Origin: Methanobrevibacter sp.
GTDB lineage: Archaea > Methanobacteriota > Methanobacteria > Methanobacteriales > Methanobacteriaceae
Assembly (NCBI RefSeq): GCF_030539555.1
Contig: NZ_JAUNXX010000003.1
Span: forward strand, 60,699-97,540
Length of the DNA stretch: 36,842 nucleotides
Direction: 5' to 3'
How positions within the stretch are numbered: position 1 is the first letter of the stretch; each line of letters starts with the position of its first letter. Both the position numbers and the translations under genes were made by a program. Of the stretch, positions 7,075-25,059 are shown piece after piece. The notes beneath the pieces are model-generated. The model was not told the DNA's origin, made no database searches, and was given only the letters and a program-made list of their open reading frames with translations.

Positions 7075-7240
7075 TTTTGATTCTTTGTGGATTTGGAACC
7101 CCCAAATACCTTTTGGACCACCCCATCCTATAAGAGGATGGGGATTCCTGATTTTTTTTCACTTAATAGGTTAATTAAGTATTTTTCAGGCTATCTCCGT
7201 TGAACCAGCGGTTTAGAATATTAATTGCTGCATTTATGTC
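7070..7240 (-). ncRNA. Predicted omega RNA (reRNA) region of TnpB
   Basis: Known TnpB nucleases use an RNA transcribed from the 3' end of tnpB through the right end of the element, with the guide read from the flanking DNA. The required layout (tnpB 3' end, short AT-rich spacer, GC-rich hairpin, flank) is present on the minus strand. The limits given are only an approximate interval. This is inferred from family knowledge, not from a conserved RNA sequence. Confidence 0.35.
7121..7143 (-). repeat. Right-end hairpin of the tnpB element
   Basis: Perfect 8-bp stem CCCCATCC (7121-7128) / GGATGGGG (7136-7143) with a 7-nt loop, located 30-50 nt downstream of the tnpB stop. IS200/IS605-family elements carry such an imperfect palindrome at the right end, where it is recognised for transposition and forms part of the omega RNA (reRNA) that guides TnpB. 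The exact element boundary is not determinable by eye. Confidence 0.65.
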
Positions 7241-8311
7241 TCTATTAAGTATTTTTCCGCATTTTGGACACTTCCAGTTGCGTTTTTTAACTTCCAAATC
7301 TTGTTTTATGTGTCCGCAGTGGTGGCATGTTCGGCTGGTGTTATGTGGTTTTACGAATTGTACGTCGTCTGCTGTGGGTTTGTAGATTTGAAATTTGTCT
7401 TTTAGTCTTTTTATGAATCGCGATAGGGGAAAAACCATGTTTTCCTCTCCTCCGATTAAAATCTTGATAGATGAGTAGTTTTCTTCAAAGACTACGGCAT
7501 CATATTCTTTGACTAGATTGTAGGTTAATTTTTCAATGTAGTCTTTTAATTGATTGGTTCTTTTGTTGTACCATTTTTGTAGTCTTTTTTGTATTTTTTT
7601 AAATCTTTTGCTTCTTTTTCTGCATTTAGACATTAATCTGTTGATTTTTTTGACCATTTGGTTTTCATGATCAATATCAAAGAATTCTTTTTGTCCTTCG
7701 CTTGTGACTAACCATCCGTTTTTATTGGAATTGACATCACAGCCAATATGTTTATCTGTTAATGGTAATTGTTCTGGTGGATTAGTTTCTACGTTGAATG
7801 ATGCATAGTGATTTAATCCATCATAATATACTGTAATGTTATTGAATTTAGTATCAGTACTGTTTAATAAATCCAGGTATTCAACGCTTGTGCTGAAGAG
7901 TATTTTTCCATGTTTTCTTAAAGTTACGGTGTTGTTTTCTACTGGTCTTTTGTCTTGTCGGATAGTTTGTCTGAAACTTGGTCGTGTTTTCTTTTTAGAG
8001 TGGAAAATTGGAGGATTATGCTTTTTACTTTTAAAACTGTTTGTAAAAGCTTTATGTAAATCATCACGGACCTGTTGCAAACTTGTAGACTCCATTTCAC
8101 CCAGATAAGGCAATTCATCTCGAGATTCCTTTAAAAATTGATTTAATTCTTTTTTAGTGGGAATTTTATTAGAATCACCATACTTGGATTTATATTTATT
8201 TAAAAGTTCATTATGGATTTTACGGGTACAACCATAGTTCTTTTTAAACATAACTTCTTGTTCGGGAGTTAAATGAAGTTTAACAACCACACCACAAATA
8301 TATTCACCCAT
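7175..8311 (-). CDS. tnpB: TnpB, RNA-guided nuclease of an IS200/IS605-type element
   Basis: A 378-residue TnpB with an N-terminal helix-turn-helix-like domain and a C-terminal RuvC domain. The RuvC triad appears intact: D192 in GCDVNSNKNG, E276 in VVFEENYS and D358 in LNRDINAA. The zinc ribbon is C329/C332 (CHHC) and C348/C351 (CPKC). Family members are RNA-guided DNA nucleases and ancestors of Cas12. No tnpA transposase is nearby, so this is a solo-tnpB (IS1341-like) element depending on a TnpA elsewhere, or immobile. The start ATG 8311 follows GGATGTGA. The upstream region has no clear left-end hairpin; the palindrome at 8625 belongs to a different end type. Confidence 0.93.
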   Translation of the reverse strand: MGEYICGVVVKLHLTPEQEVMFKKNYGCTRKIHNELLNKYKSKYGDSNKIPTKKELNQFLKESRDELPYLGEMESTSLQQVRDDLHKAFTNSFKSKKHNPPIFHSKKKTRPSFRQTIRQDKRPVENNTVTLRKHGKILFSTSVEYLDLLNSTDTKFNNITVYYDGLNHYASFNVETNPPEQLPLTDKHIGCDVNSNKNGWLVTSEGQKEFFDIDHENQMVKKINRLMSKCRKRSKRFKKIQKRLQKWYNKRTNQLKDYIEKLTYNLVKEYDAVVFEENYSSIKILIGGEENMVFPLSRFIKRLKDKFQIYKPTADDVQFVKPHNTSRTCHHCGHIKQDLEVKKRNWKCPKCGKILNRDINAAINILNRWFNGDSLKNT

Positions 8312-8459
8312 AAAAATTCACATCCACCAAAAGTCCATATAATAGTTTTTTTTCATCCCTAAAAATGAAAACATTCTACTCTTTTTTAAAACAACAATTA
8401 AAATTACTATTAATTGAATAATATATCCTTTGCAATTACTTTTAAATAAAAATTAAGTA

Positions 8460-8477
8460 AGAGCATTTGAAGTAATG
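8460..8477 (+). repeat. Short dispersed motif, copy 1 (AGAGCATTTGAAGTAATG)
   Basis: This 18-nt motif recurs with one extra A at 25041-25059 (minus strand), and its first 12 bases recur at 22004-22015 (plus strand). At both full copies it precedes, in the same orientation, a palindromic element of one family (147 nt away here, 13 nt away at the other). It may mark one end of a small mobile element. Confidence 0.5.
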
Positions 8478-8624
8478 AAATAACGAACTCAGAGCAATTT
8501 TACAAACTCAAAGCAATATTTTATAAACCACAACAAAAAAAAAGTAATACTGAACAAAAAACCATGACCTAAAATAACCTCCAAAAACACAACATTAATT
8601 AAAAAAAAAATAGTACACCCAATA

Positions 8625-8667
8625 GTGCAATTCATCCCCAACTTCAGAAGTTGGGGTATTCTTGCAT
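8625..8667 (+). repeat. Palindromic repeat element, copy A
   Basis: A stem-loop with outer arms GTGCAA/TTGCA(T) and a perfect 10-bp inner stem, CCCCAACTTC (8636-8645) / GAAGTTGGGG (8647-8656). The flanks GTGCAATTCATCC and GGTATTCTTGCA are identical to those of copy C at 24983-25027, which lies in reverse orientation. The form also resembles the right-end hairpin of the neighbouring tnpB (stem then ATTCYTG and a T-run). Probably a REP-like or IS200/IS605-derived end. Confidence 0.7.
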
Positions 8668-8963
8668 TTTTAAGATAAAAATTAAATGCATTTTCAACTT
8701 TCCACTATCAGAAGATGGGTCAATGCAATTTCCATGAAAAATGTCGTAATATACCCCATAATACAAATCGGAGATTATGAGAATAGCGAAACTAATAATG
8801 TCATTAGTGAAAAACAAATGTAAATTCTCATTAAAGTTTAAAATCATTTCTTCAAGCTTAAATGTGGAAATTTATACACGTAGATACAATAGCCAATGAA
8901 AGTGCTTGAATTAAATCATGAAAAAAGATAAAATTAGTTCAATAGCATATCCTACTCATTAAA

Positions 8964-18873: not shown

Positions 18874-19620
18874 ATGAAAATTGGAGCATCCACATTGGCC
18901 GGACTACATGAAAACCTGGAAGACATTTTAGACTTTATTGAAAATCTTGGACTGGAATATGCTGAATTAGTACATCAATTTCCCTATGAAAATATTGATG
19001 CGGATTTTTTGCAGAGTTATAATTTAAAATATTCGATACATTCCCCTTTCATGGATGTCAATATTGCATCCCTTCAGGAAAAAAGCAGAAGTAACTCTAT
19101 TGAGCAAATCAAAAACTCTATCGATTTGGCCAATAAAATTGATGCAGAATGTGTTGTAGTACACCCCGGACTGATGCCTTTTTTAGCAAGACCATTTGAA
19201 TATAAGGTATATGAAGTGGCAAATAGCTCCATTAAAGAGCTTGGTGATTACGGTAAAGATTTAGGTGTTAATGTAAGTATTGAAAACATGCCCACATTTG
19301 AAGGTATGATTTATAAAGATATGAAAAAACTTGATGAAATTCTCAGAGAATATGAAATGTCTATGACATTGGACATCGGTCATGCCAACCATGTCGGATA
19401 CTCCGCAGATGAAATGTATTTTGATTCAATTAAACACATACATGCCCATGATAATTATGGTGATGATGACTCACACCTTGCTTTAGGTGAAGGCTCTATT
19501 GATTTAAAACGTATCATCAATACTTTTGAGTCAAAAAATTATGATGGCATCTACATCATTGAAGTAAATGATAAAGATTCTATTAAAAAAAGTTATGAAT
19601 TTATAAAGAAAAACTTCTAA
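18874..19620 (+). CDS. TIM-barrel sugar phosphate isomerase/epimerase-like protein
   Basis: A 248-residue protein of the xylose isomerase-like/AP endonuclease-2 TIM-barrel superfamily. Likely metal-binding strands are AECVVVHPGLMP, VSIENMPT, MTLDIGHANH, HIHAHDNYG and IYIIEVND, which supply the expected His, Glu and Asp ligands. The substrate is unknown; endonuclease IV, epimerase and isomerase activities all occur in this fold. The start ATG 18874 follows the stop of the PIN-ATPase gene by four bases with GTGATAAC ahead. Its stop overlaps the convergent hef stop by four bases. Confidence 0.85.
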   Translation: MKIGASTLAGLHENLEDILDFIENLGLEYAELVHQFPYENIDADFLQSYNLKYSIHSPFMDVNIASLQEKSRSNSIEQIKNSIDLANKIDAECVVVHPGLMPFLARPFEYKVYEVANSSIKELGDYGKDLGVNVSIENMPTFEGMIYKDMKKLDEILREYEMSMTLDIGHANHVGYSADEMYFDSIKHIHAHDNYGDDDSHLALGEGSIDLKRIINTFESKNYDGIYIIEVNDKDSIKKSYEFIKKNF

Positions 19621-21935
19621 AGAAGTCTTTTTTCTTTAATCTTTTTGAAATACAGATATTTGGAATCGATGACCTTTTTAATATTTTCTGCTGTTTTTTT
19701 ACCTATCCCTTCAACTTCCTGAAGTTCCTTTTCGGAAGCATTGATTATATTGCCAACAGTCCCGAAATGCTCAAGCAAATTTTTAGCATTAACAGGCCCG
19801 ATATTAGGTAAAGATTCCACAATGAAAAGTTGTTGGTCCAATAAACTGAGGGGCTTTTTATCAGTTCTAATTTGAACAGGAGTTCTTTCACCATTTTGTT
19901 CTCTAATGGCAATTCTTTTTATCATTGCAGCAGTGTCTTGTGCATTTCTGGTAGGTATGATGCTGATTCCAAAGTCCAGGGCGATTGATGCAATGGATCC
20001 TCTTATTGCATTTGCATTAATCATGCCGCCGTACAAATCATCCCCCTCAAGAATCAATATAGGCTTTTTGAATTCCTCAGACAATTCACGGGCTTGCTTG
20101 AATAATCTTTTATCAATAATGGAATCGACAAAATCCTTTGCAGTCTTTCTCTCAATAGCCACCTCATCACTAACCTGATAATCTGCAACAGCCATTGATT
20201 GAACCTTAACATCCATTTCCATTTCGGTCAAATGTCTGATTACTTTTGAATTGCCTTCTCTTGAATCCGCATAAACTATTGGAAAATTATTTTCTTTTTT
20301 AGGTCTTTCTAGAACCTTGACTTTCTTTTCATTTTCCATTTTTAATGCAGCTGAAGCATTCAACTCTTCTAAAACATCAGGGTCGATTAATTGATTCTTC
20401 ATATTAATCTCCTTATTTACACTTGACCAATAATAACCTTCATCCCTTGTTCCGTTGGTTATTAACACTTTTACACGACCGGTTCTTTTACGACCTGTCC
20501 TTCCCCTTCTTTGAATCATACGTACTTCTGAAGGGACCGGCTCATATAAAATAACTAAATCAACAGCAGGAATGTCAATGCCCTCTTCAGCAACACTAGT
20601 TGATAGAAGTACATCGTATTCACCCATTCTAAATGATTTTATAATGGCTTTTTGCTGTTTTTGGGTTAAACCTTTTTCACCATCCTTGGTAGCCTGGCCA
20701 AAGAATTTGGCTGATTTGATTCCCTCTTTTTCAAGTTTTTGATGAATCATTTCAAGGGTATCCCTGTATTGAGTAAAAACAATGATTTTAGATGAAACAT
20801 CATCTTCATTATCTGTAAATCTTTTAGACTGAAGTTTGGTTTGACCGCCTTCAGAACCCAGTTCCTTTTTAAGAATTCTGGTAAGTTCTCTTAATTTTGG
20901 ATGTTCCCAACCATGTTTTTCAGCTTCTCTTGCAAGTTTTACAGCACGACTAAAATTATCATCCCACATTAGAGATTTTGCAGCTTTTGTTTGTTTTTTA
21001 CGCAACCTTGCCACATATTTATTGAAAGTTGATACACCCTGAGTTTCAATTAACTCCTGAGCATGCTGGACATTAATTACGGCACTCAATATTGAAATGG
21101 CTTGGAATAACTCTTTATCAGGATTAGCAGATCTTGCAATTTCACCCTGTATTCTCGCCCTTGCCTTTAATATGTCTACCTTATTAACTGCAACAGTTCT
21201 AATAACACTCATATTCTTTAAAGCTTTCAATCTAATTTTTAATGCTTTATCGATACTGGTTTTGATTTTTTCAAGTTCCTCACTCATCTTAACTCTGACC
21301 CAATCAATTTCAACAGGATTGAAGTAAGGTTTTACATCACTGTCATCTTCAGTTTTAACAACAATATTTTGGATGTATAAATTTTGACATACTTCCTTAA
21401 TTTTTAACTTGTCAGACCCCGGAGAAGCAGTTAAACCCAAAATAAGATTAAAATTAGATTCCTGAACATATCTTGATGCCAAATAAACATAGGAATAGGA
21501 TCCGACACCGTGGTGGCACTCATCAAAAACAATTAATGAAACACTGCTTAAGTCATAACGGCCGTTTAACAAATCAGATTCAACAGTCTGAGGTGTTGCA
21601 CAGATAATTCTTGATTCTTCCCATCTTGTTACTCTCTCATCGGTTTTTACAGCACCTGTTATTGAAGTGCATGGAAGAGTCAGAAACTCTTTAAAACTAG
21701 ATTCATGCTGAATGGCTAAAGGTTTGCTTGGTGCTAGAACAAGAACTTTTGAATTTTTAACTTTATGAAGTCTATCAGCAGCTACCAAAATAGCTACGAT
21801 TGTTTTACCTAATGCTGTTGGTGCAACAACCATAGTATTTCCTTTTTTTAAGACATCCCCTGCAAGAATCTGTTGATAAAGTCTTGATTCAATAGAATTC
21901 TCTTTTATTAAAGGATGATTAATATAGCTTGCCAT
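19617..21935 (-). CDS. hef: Hef, fork-specific helicase/nuclease (XPF/FANCM family)
   Basis: A 772-residue DNA repair enzyme that unwinds and cleaves stalled forks. The N-terminal SF2 helicase has APTALGKT (about 38-45), motif II as FDECHHGVG (DECH rather than DEAH), LTASPG, TQYRDT and QRRGRTGR. The C-terminal XPF nuclease has ADSREG and the core AIERKTAKDF, with all acidic and basic catalytic residues present. Two helix-hairpin-helix motifs close the protein (SLPNIGPVNAKNLL, VEGIGKKTAENI). ATG 21935 follows GGAGG; GTG 21947 is inside the binding site. It appears monocistronic. Confidence 0.96.
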   Translation of the reverse strand: MASYINHPLIKENSIESRLYQQILAGDVLKKGNTMVVAPTALGKTIVAILVAADRLHKVKNSKVLVLAPSKPLAIQHESSFKEFLTLPCTSITGAVKTDERVTRWEESRIICATPQTVESDLLNGRYDLSSVSLIVFDECHHGVGSYSYVYLASRYVQESNFNLILGLTASPGSDKLKIKEVCQNLYIQNIVVKTEDDSDVKPYFNPVEIDWVRVKMSEELEKIKTSIDKALKIRLKALKNMSVIRTVAVNKVDILKARARIQGEIARSANPDKELFQAISILSAVINVQHAQELIETQGVSTFNKYVARLRKKQTKAAKSLMWDDNFSRAVKLAREAEKHGWEHPKLRELTRILKKELGSEGGQTKLQSKRFTDNEDDVSSKIIVFTQYRDTLEMIHQKLEKEGIKSAKFFGQATKDGEKGLTQKQQKAIIKSFRMGEYDVLLSTSVAEEGIDIPAVDLVILYEPVPSEVRMIQRRGRTGRKRTGRVKVLITNGTRDEGYYWSSVNKEINMKNQLIDPDVLEELNASAALKMENEKKVKVLERPKKENNFPIVYADSREGNSKVIRHLTEMEMDVKVQSMAVADYQVSDEVAIERKTAKDFVDSIIDKRLFKQARELSEEFKKPILILEGDDLYGGMINANAIRGSIASIALDFGISIIPTRNAQDTAAMIKRIAIREQNGERTPVQIRTDKKPLSLLDQQLFIVESLPNIGPVNAKNLLEHFGTVGNIINASEKELQEVEGIGKKTAENIKKVIDSKYLYFKKIKEKRLL

Positions 21936-22003
21936 AATATCCTCCACAATTTACCAGTAACCTATTATGATATAATCTTTAATTATTATATAAAGTGTTA
22001 GTG

Positions 22004-22015
22004 AGAGCATTTGAA
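22004..22015 (+). repeat. Short dispersed motif, partial copy (AGAGCATTTGAA)
   Basis: Matches the first 12 bases of the motif at 8460 and 25059, in the hef/Mur ligase spacer. No palindromic element follows it here. It may be a remnant or a chance match. Confidence 0.3.
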
Positions 22016-22054
22016 AAATAATATTAAAATTTTAAGTTGCAGAAAACATTTGAA

Positions 22055-24956: not shown

Positions 24957-24982
24957 CAACAATTCCTCACAATATCTTAAGT

Positions 24983-25027
24983 GTGCAAGAATACCTTTAC
25001 TTCTTTTAAGTCAAGGATGAATTGCAC
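24983..25027 (-). repeat. Palindromic repeat element, copy C, in the Mur ligase leader
   Basis: Outer arms TGTGCAA (24982-24988) / TTGCACA (25022-25028) enclose an inner stem CCTTTACTT (24994-25002) / AAGTCAAGG (25008-25016) with one mismatch. On the minus strand the flanks GTGCAATTCATCC and GGTATTCTTGCA are identical to copy A at 8625-8667. The inner stem sequence differs but pairing is kept. It may also fold in the 5' leader of the Mur ligase transcript. Confidence 0.7.
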
Positions 25028-25040
25028 AAAAAAGGAGAGG

Positions 25041-25059
25041 CATTACTTTCAAATGCTCT
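25041..25059 (-). repeat. Short dispersed motif, copy at the Mur ligase leader
   Basis: On the minus strand it reads AGAGCATTTGAAAGTAATG, the same as the 8460 copy with one added A. It precedes copy C of the palindrome by 13 nt in the same relative order as at 8460/8625. With adjacent bases it can form a small hairpin (GCATT/AAATGC). Confidence 0.5.

What the first reader, a model, noticed from the sequence alone, without database searches (positions are those of the whole stretch)
8625..8667. Palindromic repeat family with a covarying stem (copies A and C)
Copies at 8625-8667 and 24983-25027 (opposite orientation) share flanks GTGCAATTCATCC and GGTATTCTTGCA exactly. The inner stems differ in sequence but still pair (CCCCAACTTC/GAAGTTGGGG against CCTTTACTT/AAGTCAAGG). 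Paired change suggests that the structure matters, as in REP-like or IS200/IS605-derived elements.
Basis: seen in the sequence. Interest (0 to 1): 0.6.

Follow-up and report, generated by a model that had tools for sequence, protein, structure and literature searches.

The report
Left-end hairpin of jumping TnpB genes
The two matching hairpins mark the left ends of IS200/IS605-type jumping genes in a gut methanogen (one next to an intact RNA-guided DNA-cutting gene, one a relic), and these elements carry a promoter motif that the host uses in front of its own DNA-repair and replication genes.

Summary
Both hairpins exist and share exact flanks, and the inner stems differ while still pairing (copy C has one mismatch). 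Among 52 distinct copies, 97.9% of stem cells pair, with 64 two-sided changes against 15.8 in shuffles.

They are left ends (LE) of IS200/IS605, mostly IS1341-type (TnpB-only), elements in Methanobrevibacter; they are not REPs. Copy A begins a 1562-bp element: TTTAT target, LE hairpin, tnpB with its RuvC triad kept, right-end hairpin. Copy C is an orphan LE, absent at the same gene junction in relatives. Hairpin counts across 67 genomes track TnpB (rho 0.70). Only 11 genomes have Y1 TnpA hits, but all nine examined Y1 loci carry the hairpin 5' of tnpA. The window's own draft genome has no detectable Y1.

Two extensions came up. (1) The same LE caps ~300-nt protein-less mini-elements ending in an omega-RNA-like segment (34 copies, 17 genomes). 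(2) A genus-wide motif, TACTTTTCAAATGCTCT, sits upstream of hef, hjc, mre11, uvrA, uvrD, RPA, MCM and topoVIB, including in genomes without the hairpin. It also lies before tnpB in 26 of 30 elements. TnpB may therefore be wired into a host replication/repair regulon; this rests on sequence alone.

The parts
7113..8674 (-). Element A, complete IS1341-type (TnpB-only) IS200/IS605 element, 1562 bp from the base after TTTAT to ..GGTCCAA
   Evidence: 82.6% DNA identity to a sister element on C76 that starts and stops at the same ends; right boundary where similarity to the element-free orthologous site in G018 resumes at 7112
8675..8679 (-). TTTAT pentanucleotide at the left junction (target / predicted TAM)
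   Evidence: Conservation over 55 copies starts abruptly at TTTAT (>=89% per position) while bases further 5' are random; TTTAT is reported at the left end of solo-tnpB elements in S. islandicus (PMC10640517)
8625..8667 (-). Copy A: left-end hairpin TGCAAGAATACCCCAACTTCTGAAGTTGGGGATGAATTGCAC
   Evidence: (86.2 bits)
8460..8473 (-). Replication/repair-regulon-like motif inside element A (..TTAC-TTCAAATGCTCT; 2-nt deletion relative to consensus TACTTTTCAAATGCTCT), followed by a TATA-like TTTTTATTTAAAA
   Evidence: intact in the sister element on C76
7175..8311 (-). tnpB, 378 aa, RuvC residues D192, E276, D358 and zinc ribbon kept
   Evidence: PF07282 1.5e-17, PF01385 6.5e-14, PF12323; aligns to ISDra2 TnpB 8bf8/8h1j
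7121..7146 (-). Right-end hairpin AATCCCCATCCTC-TTATA-GGATGGGG, followed by GGTCCAA end; predicted omega-RNA 3' stem
   Evidence: (z -3.0)
7093..7112 (-). Predicted guide: 20 nt of flank 3' of the right end (AAGGTATTTGGGGGTTCCAA)
   Evidence: Position by analogy with ISDra2 reRNA (PMC8612924); flank shared with element-free G018 site; inference
24983..25027 (+). Copy C: left-end hairpin of a truncated element
   Evidence: 71.8 bits
24976..25136 (+). Orphan left-end remnant containing copy C (LE + promoter region, no tnpB, no right end)
   Evidence: Homologous to LEs of tnpB elements L009/L010; segment missing between the same two genes in 14 relatives aligned over the site; no RE-like hairpin
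25043..25059 (+). Same motif inside remnant C (13-nt core TTTCAAATGCTCT exact at 25047-25059)
22004..22017 (-). The same motif (TTTTCAAATGCTCT, exact) as host site upstream of hef (ERCC4/DEAD helicase-nuclease, 19617-21947 -); host context, not part of an element

Best explanation
The hairpins are subterminal left-end palindromes of IS200/IS605-superfamily elements, chiefly IS1341-type (tnpB without tnpA), that have spread through Methanobrevibacter. Mechanism (inferred from the family): on single-stranded lagging-strand DNA the LE and RE hairpins are bound by a Y1 TnpA supplied in trans, which cuts after TTTAT and at ..GTTCAA, excises a single-strand circle and inserts it 3' of another TTTAT. 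The stem is under structural selection (shown by covariation) because the transposase reads shape plus the conserved unpaired GAATA/ATGAA loop (inferred). TnpB with an omega-RNA from the right end, guided by the adjacent flank, would cut the emptied TTTAT+flank site so that repair restores the element (known for ISDra2; inferred here). Copy A is the left end of a complete tnpB element; copy C is a left end whose tnpB and right end were lost. In most elements tnpB (not tnpA) also lies behind a promoter motif shared with host replication/repair genes, so its expression is probably tied to replication or repair state (inferred).
For: Sister full element with coinciding ends. TnpB domains and RuvC triad. 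Abrupt left boundary at TTTAT over 55 copies. RE hairpin ending GTTCAA (GTCCAA in element A) in seven elements with and four without tnpB. Element-free orthologous sites for A and C. 97.9% pairing and 64 two-sided changes against 15.8 shuffled. All nine Y1 loci examined with sequence on the 5' side carry the hairpin 5' of tnpA. Hairpin counts correlate with TnpB counts (rho 0.70). Motif upstream of tnpB in 26 of 30 elements, 0 of 30 reversed.
Against: No Y1 transposase is found in this draft genome (94.7% complete), nor in 28 genomes with at least 5 hairpins (only five of them >=95% complete), so present mobility is unproven. Element A's pre-insertion site is not clean: about 180 bp of left flank are missing relative to G018. 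Omega-RNA, guide use and regulation have no transcript data. In hairpin-selected loci with enough sequence only 10 of 15 have a detectable TnpB.
Confidence: 0.94

Rival explanations
1. REP/RAYT system: free-standing repetitive extragenic palindromes spread by a solitary domesticated TnpA-REP.
For: Short intergenic palindromes with an internal mismatch, many orphan copies.
Against: No GTAG; TTTAT boundary typical of IS left ends; copies abut tnpB; no Y1 in this genome, and the Y1 loci examined in relatives lie within elements; tens, not hundreds, of copies.
Confidence: 0.02
2. The hairpins are host RNA elements (terminators, attenuators or riboswitch-like leaders) conserved by RNA structure.
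For: Covarying stem; intergenic positions; paired changes fit RNA as well as single-stranded DNA.
Against: No Rfam match in the window besides a tRNA; no fixed orientation or distance to host genes; lineage-specific presence at orthologous junctions; fixed position at the tip of a mobile element.
Confidence: 0.03
3. Orphan copies such as C are kept because they were exapted as promoters or operators of neighbouring host genes.
For: C contains the motif used by host repair genes (25043-25059) in an intergenic region; the Mur-ligase-like gene starts at 24962.
Against: The motif and TATA-like box in C point away from that gene (+ strand, gene on -); no aligned relative has the remnant at this junction; the hairpin already carries a mismatch.
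Confidence: 0.05
4. The shared motif TACTTTTCAAATGCTCT is an ordinary core-promoter or transcript-start signal of the genus, not a repair-regulon operator, so its presence in tnpB elements means only that tnpB has a good promoter.
For: It lies about 10 nt upstream of a TATA-like box; a few sites precede non-repair genes (PfkB kinase, YdjM-like, small ORFs).
Against: Only about 5-48 sites per genome at up to 2 mismatches, far fewer than promoters; in G001, where the hairpin model finds nothing, roughly 12 of 19 downstream genes are replication, repair or recombination genes.
Confidence: 0.3

Closest known systems
IS200/IS605 superfamily, IS1341-type (solo tnpB), e.g. solo-tnpB elements of Sulfolobus islandicus (PMC10640517)
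   Same: LE and RE hairpins, TTTAT at the left end, tnpB with RuvC triad, RE-derived omega-RNA region with adjacent flank
   Different: Methanobrevibacter TnpBs; LE with a 5x5 internal loop; tnpB promoter with a host replication/repair motif
ISDra2 of Deinococcus radiodurans (PMC8612924, PMC2806898)
   Same: TnpB homologue; pentanucleotide target adjoining LE; tnpA+tnpB versions exist in relatives; ISDra2 transposition is triggered by irradiation
   Different: ISDra2 uses TTGAT; its DNA-damage link is through ssDNA and genome reassembly, whereas here a shared promoter motif is proposed
PATEs (palindrome-associated transposable elements) of Haloquadratum (PMC3119063) and a PATE-like element of Halanaerobium (PMC7290912)
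   Same: Protein-less short elements with IS605-like near-terminal palindromes, like the ~300-nt mini-elements L008, L011, L159
   Different: Here one family over 17 genomes keeps a promoter-like block and a full omega-RNA-like 3' segment with its fold; window copy C itself lacks a right end, so it is a relic rather than a PATE
REP / RAYT (TnpA-REP) (PMC8266576)
   Same: Palindrome with mismatches recognised by a Y1-type enzyme
   Different: GTAG foot and solitary RAYT absent; palindromes are element ends
Orc1-2-centred DNA-damage regulon of Sulfolobus/Saccharolobus (PMC10470591)
   Same: A conserved promoter motif shared by DNA exchange/repair genes in an archaeon; that network includes the herA-mre11-rad50-nurA operon
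   Different: Different lineage and gene set; the regulator in Methanobrevibacter is unknown; here mobile tnpB elements share the motif

Membership tests
IS200/IS605 superfamily (IS1341-type) | Subterminal hairpins at both ends | tested here: met
   LE; RE
IS200/IS605 superfamily (IS1341-type) | Fixed short target sequence 5' of the left end | tested here: met
   TTTAT
IS200/IS605 superfamily (IS1341-type) | No target-site duplication | tested here: inconclusive
   No duplication seen, but A lost about 180 bp of left flank and C lost its right end
IS200/IS605 superfamily (IS1341-type) | TnpB (OrfB) with RuvC triad and zinc ribbon | tested here: met
IS200/IS605 superfamily (IS1341-type) | Ends shared with elements carrying Y1 TnpA | tested here: met
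   L077, L081-L083, L085, L087-L090; none in own genome
IS200/IS605 superfamily (IS1341-type) | Excision/insertion by single-strand peel-and-paste; RNA-guided cleavage | not testable with these tools
   Needs biochemistry
REP/RAYT | GTAG (or similar) tetranucleotide 5' of palindrome | tested here: not met
REP/RAYT | Solitary RAYT gene in the genome | tested here: not met
   PF01797 absent in own genome
PATE (for window copy C) | Both near-terminal palindromes, no protein gene | tested here: not met
   No RE in copy C
PATE (for mini-elements L008/L011/L159 elsewhere in the genome) | Both near-terminal palindromes, no protein gene, multiple copies | tested here: met

The most novel reading that the evidence does not exclude
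In Methanobrevibacter the RNA-guided nuclease TnpB, and a family of protein-less ~300-nt mobile omega-RNA units, are transcribed from promoters carrying the operator of a previously undescribed host replication/repair regulon. The elements would thus express their homing nuclease and guides when the cell is primed for recombination, and the mini-elements would be retained in trans by borrowed TnpA and TnpB.
Probability: 0.45. Interest if true: 0.82.

Novelty: new variant of a known kind. Interest (0 to 1): 0.5.

Why it matters
The hairpins themselves are ordinary element ends, well explained. What they led to is less ordinary. First, there is a candidate archaeal replication/repair regulon motif in Methanobrevibacter, a gut methanogen group, present in all 67 genomes examined. 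Second, mobile RNA-guided nucleases appear to have tapped into it. Third, protein-less mobile units keep an omega-RNA-like fold and could act in trans. Together these make the open question of when IS-borne TnpB is expressed, and whether omega-RNAs act across elements, directly testable in methanogens.

Tried and rejected
REP/RAYT: rejected (no GTAG, no Y1 in genome, hairpins at element junctions). Host structured RNA: no Rfam hit at or near the hairpins or mini-elements. Reading the hairpin as the right end/omega-RNA 3' stem: rejected because it lies 5' of tnpB and the true right end is at 7113-7146. RNAalifold on the omega-RNA part recovered only 16 of 31 pairs; the hand structure gives 8 pairs with two-sided changes against 2.7 shuffled, but slid controls reach up to 7 pairs, so omega-RNA covariation is only moderate. 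Papers specifically on Methanobrevibacter IS605 or a methanogen repair motif were not found in the open library; that library is incomplete.

Full report
Observation. Read 5'->3' they are TGCAAGAATACC-stem-GGATGAATTGCAC: copy A on the - strand (8625-8667), copy C on the + strand (24983-25027). The single-stranded DNA folds are better than shuffles (z -4.7 and -3.0). The inner stem of C has one mismatch. A conserved 5x5 unpaired loop separates the inner and outer stems.

Copy number and covariation. The exact pattern finds four copies in the genome, none for its reverse. blastn and the covariance model find about 11-16. In a 60-hit alignment (52 distinct) 97.9% of stem cells pair; 8 of 14 pairs show two-sided changes, 64 such cells against 15.8 in shuffles and at most 6 in slid controls. 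The alignment is fitted to the model, which favours the structure somewhat, but the inner-stem changes (A-U/G-C/U-A/C-G) are plain in the letters.

What it is. Copy A lies about 310 nt 5' of an ORF (7175-8311 -) that is TnpB: PF07282, PF01385 and PF12323, aligned almost end to end with ISDra2 TnpB, with D192, E276 and D358 at the catalytic positions. A sister on contig C76 is 82.6% identical over 1.6 kb and shares both ends. The right end is a hairpin followed by GGTCCAA; elements with tnpB and without it share the ending GTTCAA. The left boundary is abrupt: over 55 copies conservation begins at TTTAT, with nothing 5' of it. TTTAT is the motif reported for solo-tnpB elements of S. islandicus (PMC10640517), and the identity of target and TAM is established for ISDra2 (PMC8612924).

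Insertion evidence. At copy C's gene junction, 14 relatives aligned over the site lack the ~160-bp segment, and G050 reads ..CACATATTTAT|ATTAG.. at the junction. C is therefore a lineage-specific insertion that has since lost tnpB and its right end. For A, G018 has the same gene neighbourhood without the element; similarity resumes at the predicted right end (..CCAA|AAGGT in the window, TATAT|AAGGT in G018), with about 180 bp of left flank deleted in the window.

Tracking. In 67 genus genomes (named Methanobrevibacter through) the hairpin occurs in 55, TnpB (PF07282) in 53, Y1 TnpA (PF01797) in 11. Counts correlate with TnpB (rho 0.70; 0.76 in genomes at least 90% complete) and weakly with Y1 (0.32) (numbers transcribed). 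All nine Y1 loci examined with 5' sequence carry the hairpin 5' of tnpA, usually with tnpB behind it. No genome with Y1 lacks the hairpin. The own genome has no Y1 hit. The simplest reading is TnpA in trans, formerly or from unassembled or horizontally arriving copies.

Mini-elements. L008, L011 and L159 in this genome are 302-308 nt elements with the same LE and an RE but no gene. A search with L011 yields 34 distinct full copies in 17 genomes; seven copies from G046 fall in one well-supported clade together with two from G043, the mark of amplification. Their 3' ~100 nt match the 3' end of tnpB elements L009/L037, fold with z -4.0 and show modest covariation. They resemble PATEs but keep what looks like a complete omega-RNA with a TATA-like block upstream. 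That they give functional guides is inference.

The shared motif. Elements contain ..TTACTTTTCAAATGCTCTC.. about 10 nt upstream of a TATA-like box. In this genome the 13-nt core has 17 exact and 26 one-mismatch sites against 2 for the reversed control. The sites precede uvrA and mre11, hef, and, identified by sequence resemblance, hjc, hel308, MCM, nurA, a UvrD-like and an XPD-like helicase. All 67 genomes have it, including G001, G002 and G007 where the hairpin model finds nothing. In G001 all 20 sites are intergenic and 19 lie at most 221 nt before an ORF on the same strand: topoVIB, hjc, hef, RPA, nrdD, uvrD, two XPD-like helicases, a MutS-V protein, a hel308-like helicase, an mre11-like nuclease, an integrase, DUF763 and some unrelated genes; G002 adds uvrA and MCM. 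In elements it lies upstream of tnpB in 26 of 30 (53-205 nt), none with the reversed motif; where tnpA is present it lies between tnpA and tnpB in six of eight. Element A has it with a 2-nt deletion. This supports a host replication/repair regulon that tnpB elements tap. Induction by damage, the regulator and any effect on TnpB are untested.

Verdict. The finding as given is confirmed and explained: left ends of IS200/IS605 (IS1341-type) elements, a known kind. The extensions (regulon motif before tnpB; protein-less omega-RNA units) make it a new variant worth an experiment.

Noticed in passing
window 22004-22017 (-), upstream of 19617-21947 (-): Exact copy of the TTTTCAAATGCTCT motif in the promoter region of hef; the same motif precedes many replication/repair genes genus-wide, a candidate replication/repair regulon operator.
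   Followed up: yes
L008, L011/L128, L159 (contigs C16, C41, C85 of the same genome) and the further full copies listed: Protein-less ~300-nt mini-elements with LE, TATA-like block, omega-RNA-like 3' segment and RE; amplified in G046/G043.
   Followed up: partly
window 25043-25059: Remnant C keeps the motif with an exact 13-nt core although its tnpB is gone.
   Followed up: partly
window 8680-8900: Element A sits beside a decayed gene tail whose intact version is in G018 (L117); about 180 bp between the flanks are missing in the window.
   Followed up: partly
G051, G039, G036, G046, G065, G060: Genomes with 20-31 hairpins but no detectable Y1 transposase; unclear whether drafts miss it, it was lost, or another enzyme moves the elements.
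   Followed up: no
L044 (CADCCU010000011.1): A contig titled 'uncultured Ureaplasma' carries a Methanobrevibacter-type TnpB element: probably a mis-binned contig.
   Followed up: no
left-end hairpin (window 8625-8667), GAATA/ATGAA internal loop: Five unpaired bases on each side are almost invariant while the stems vary; possible transposase recognition feature, as for bulges in other Y1 hairpins.
   Followed up: no
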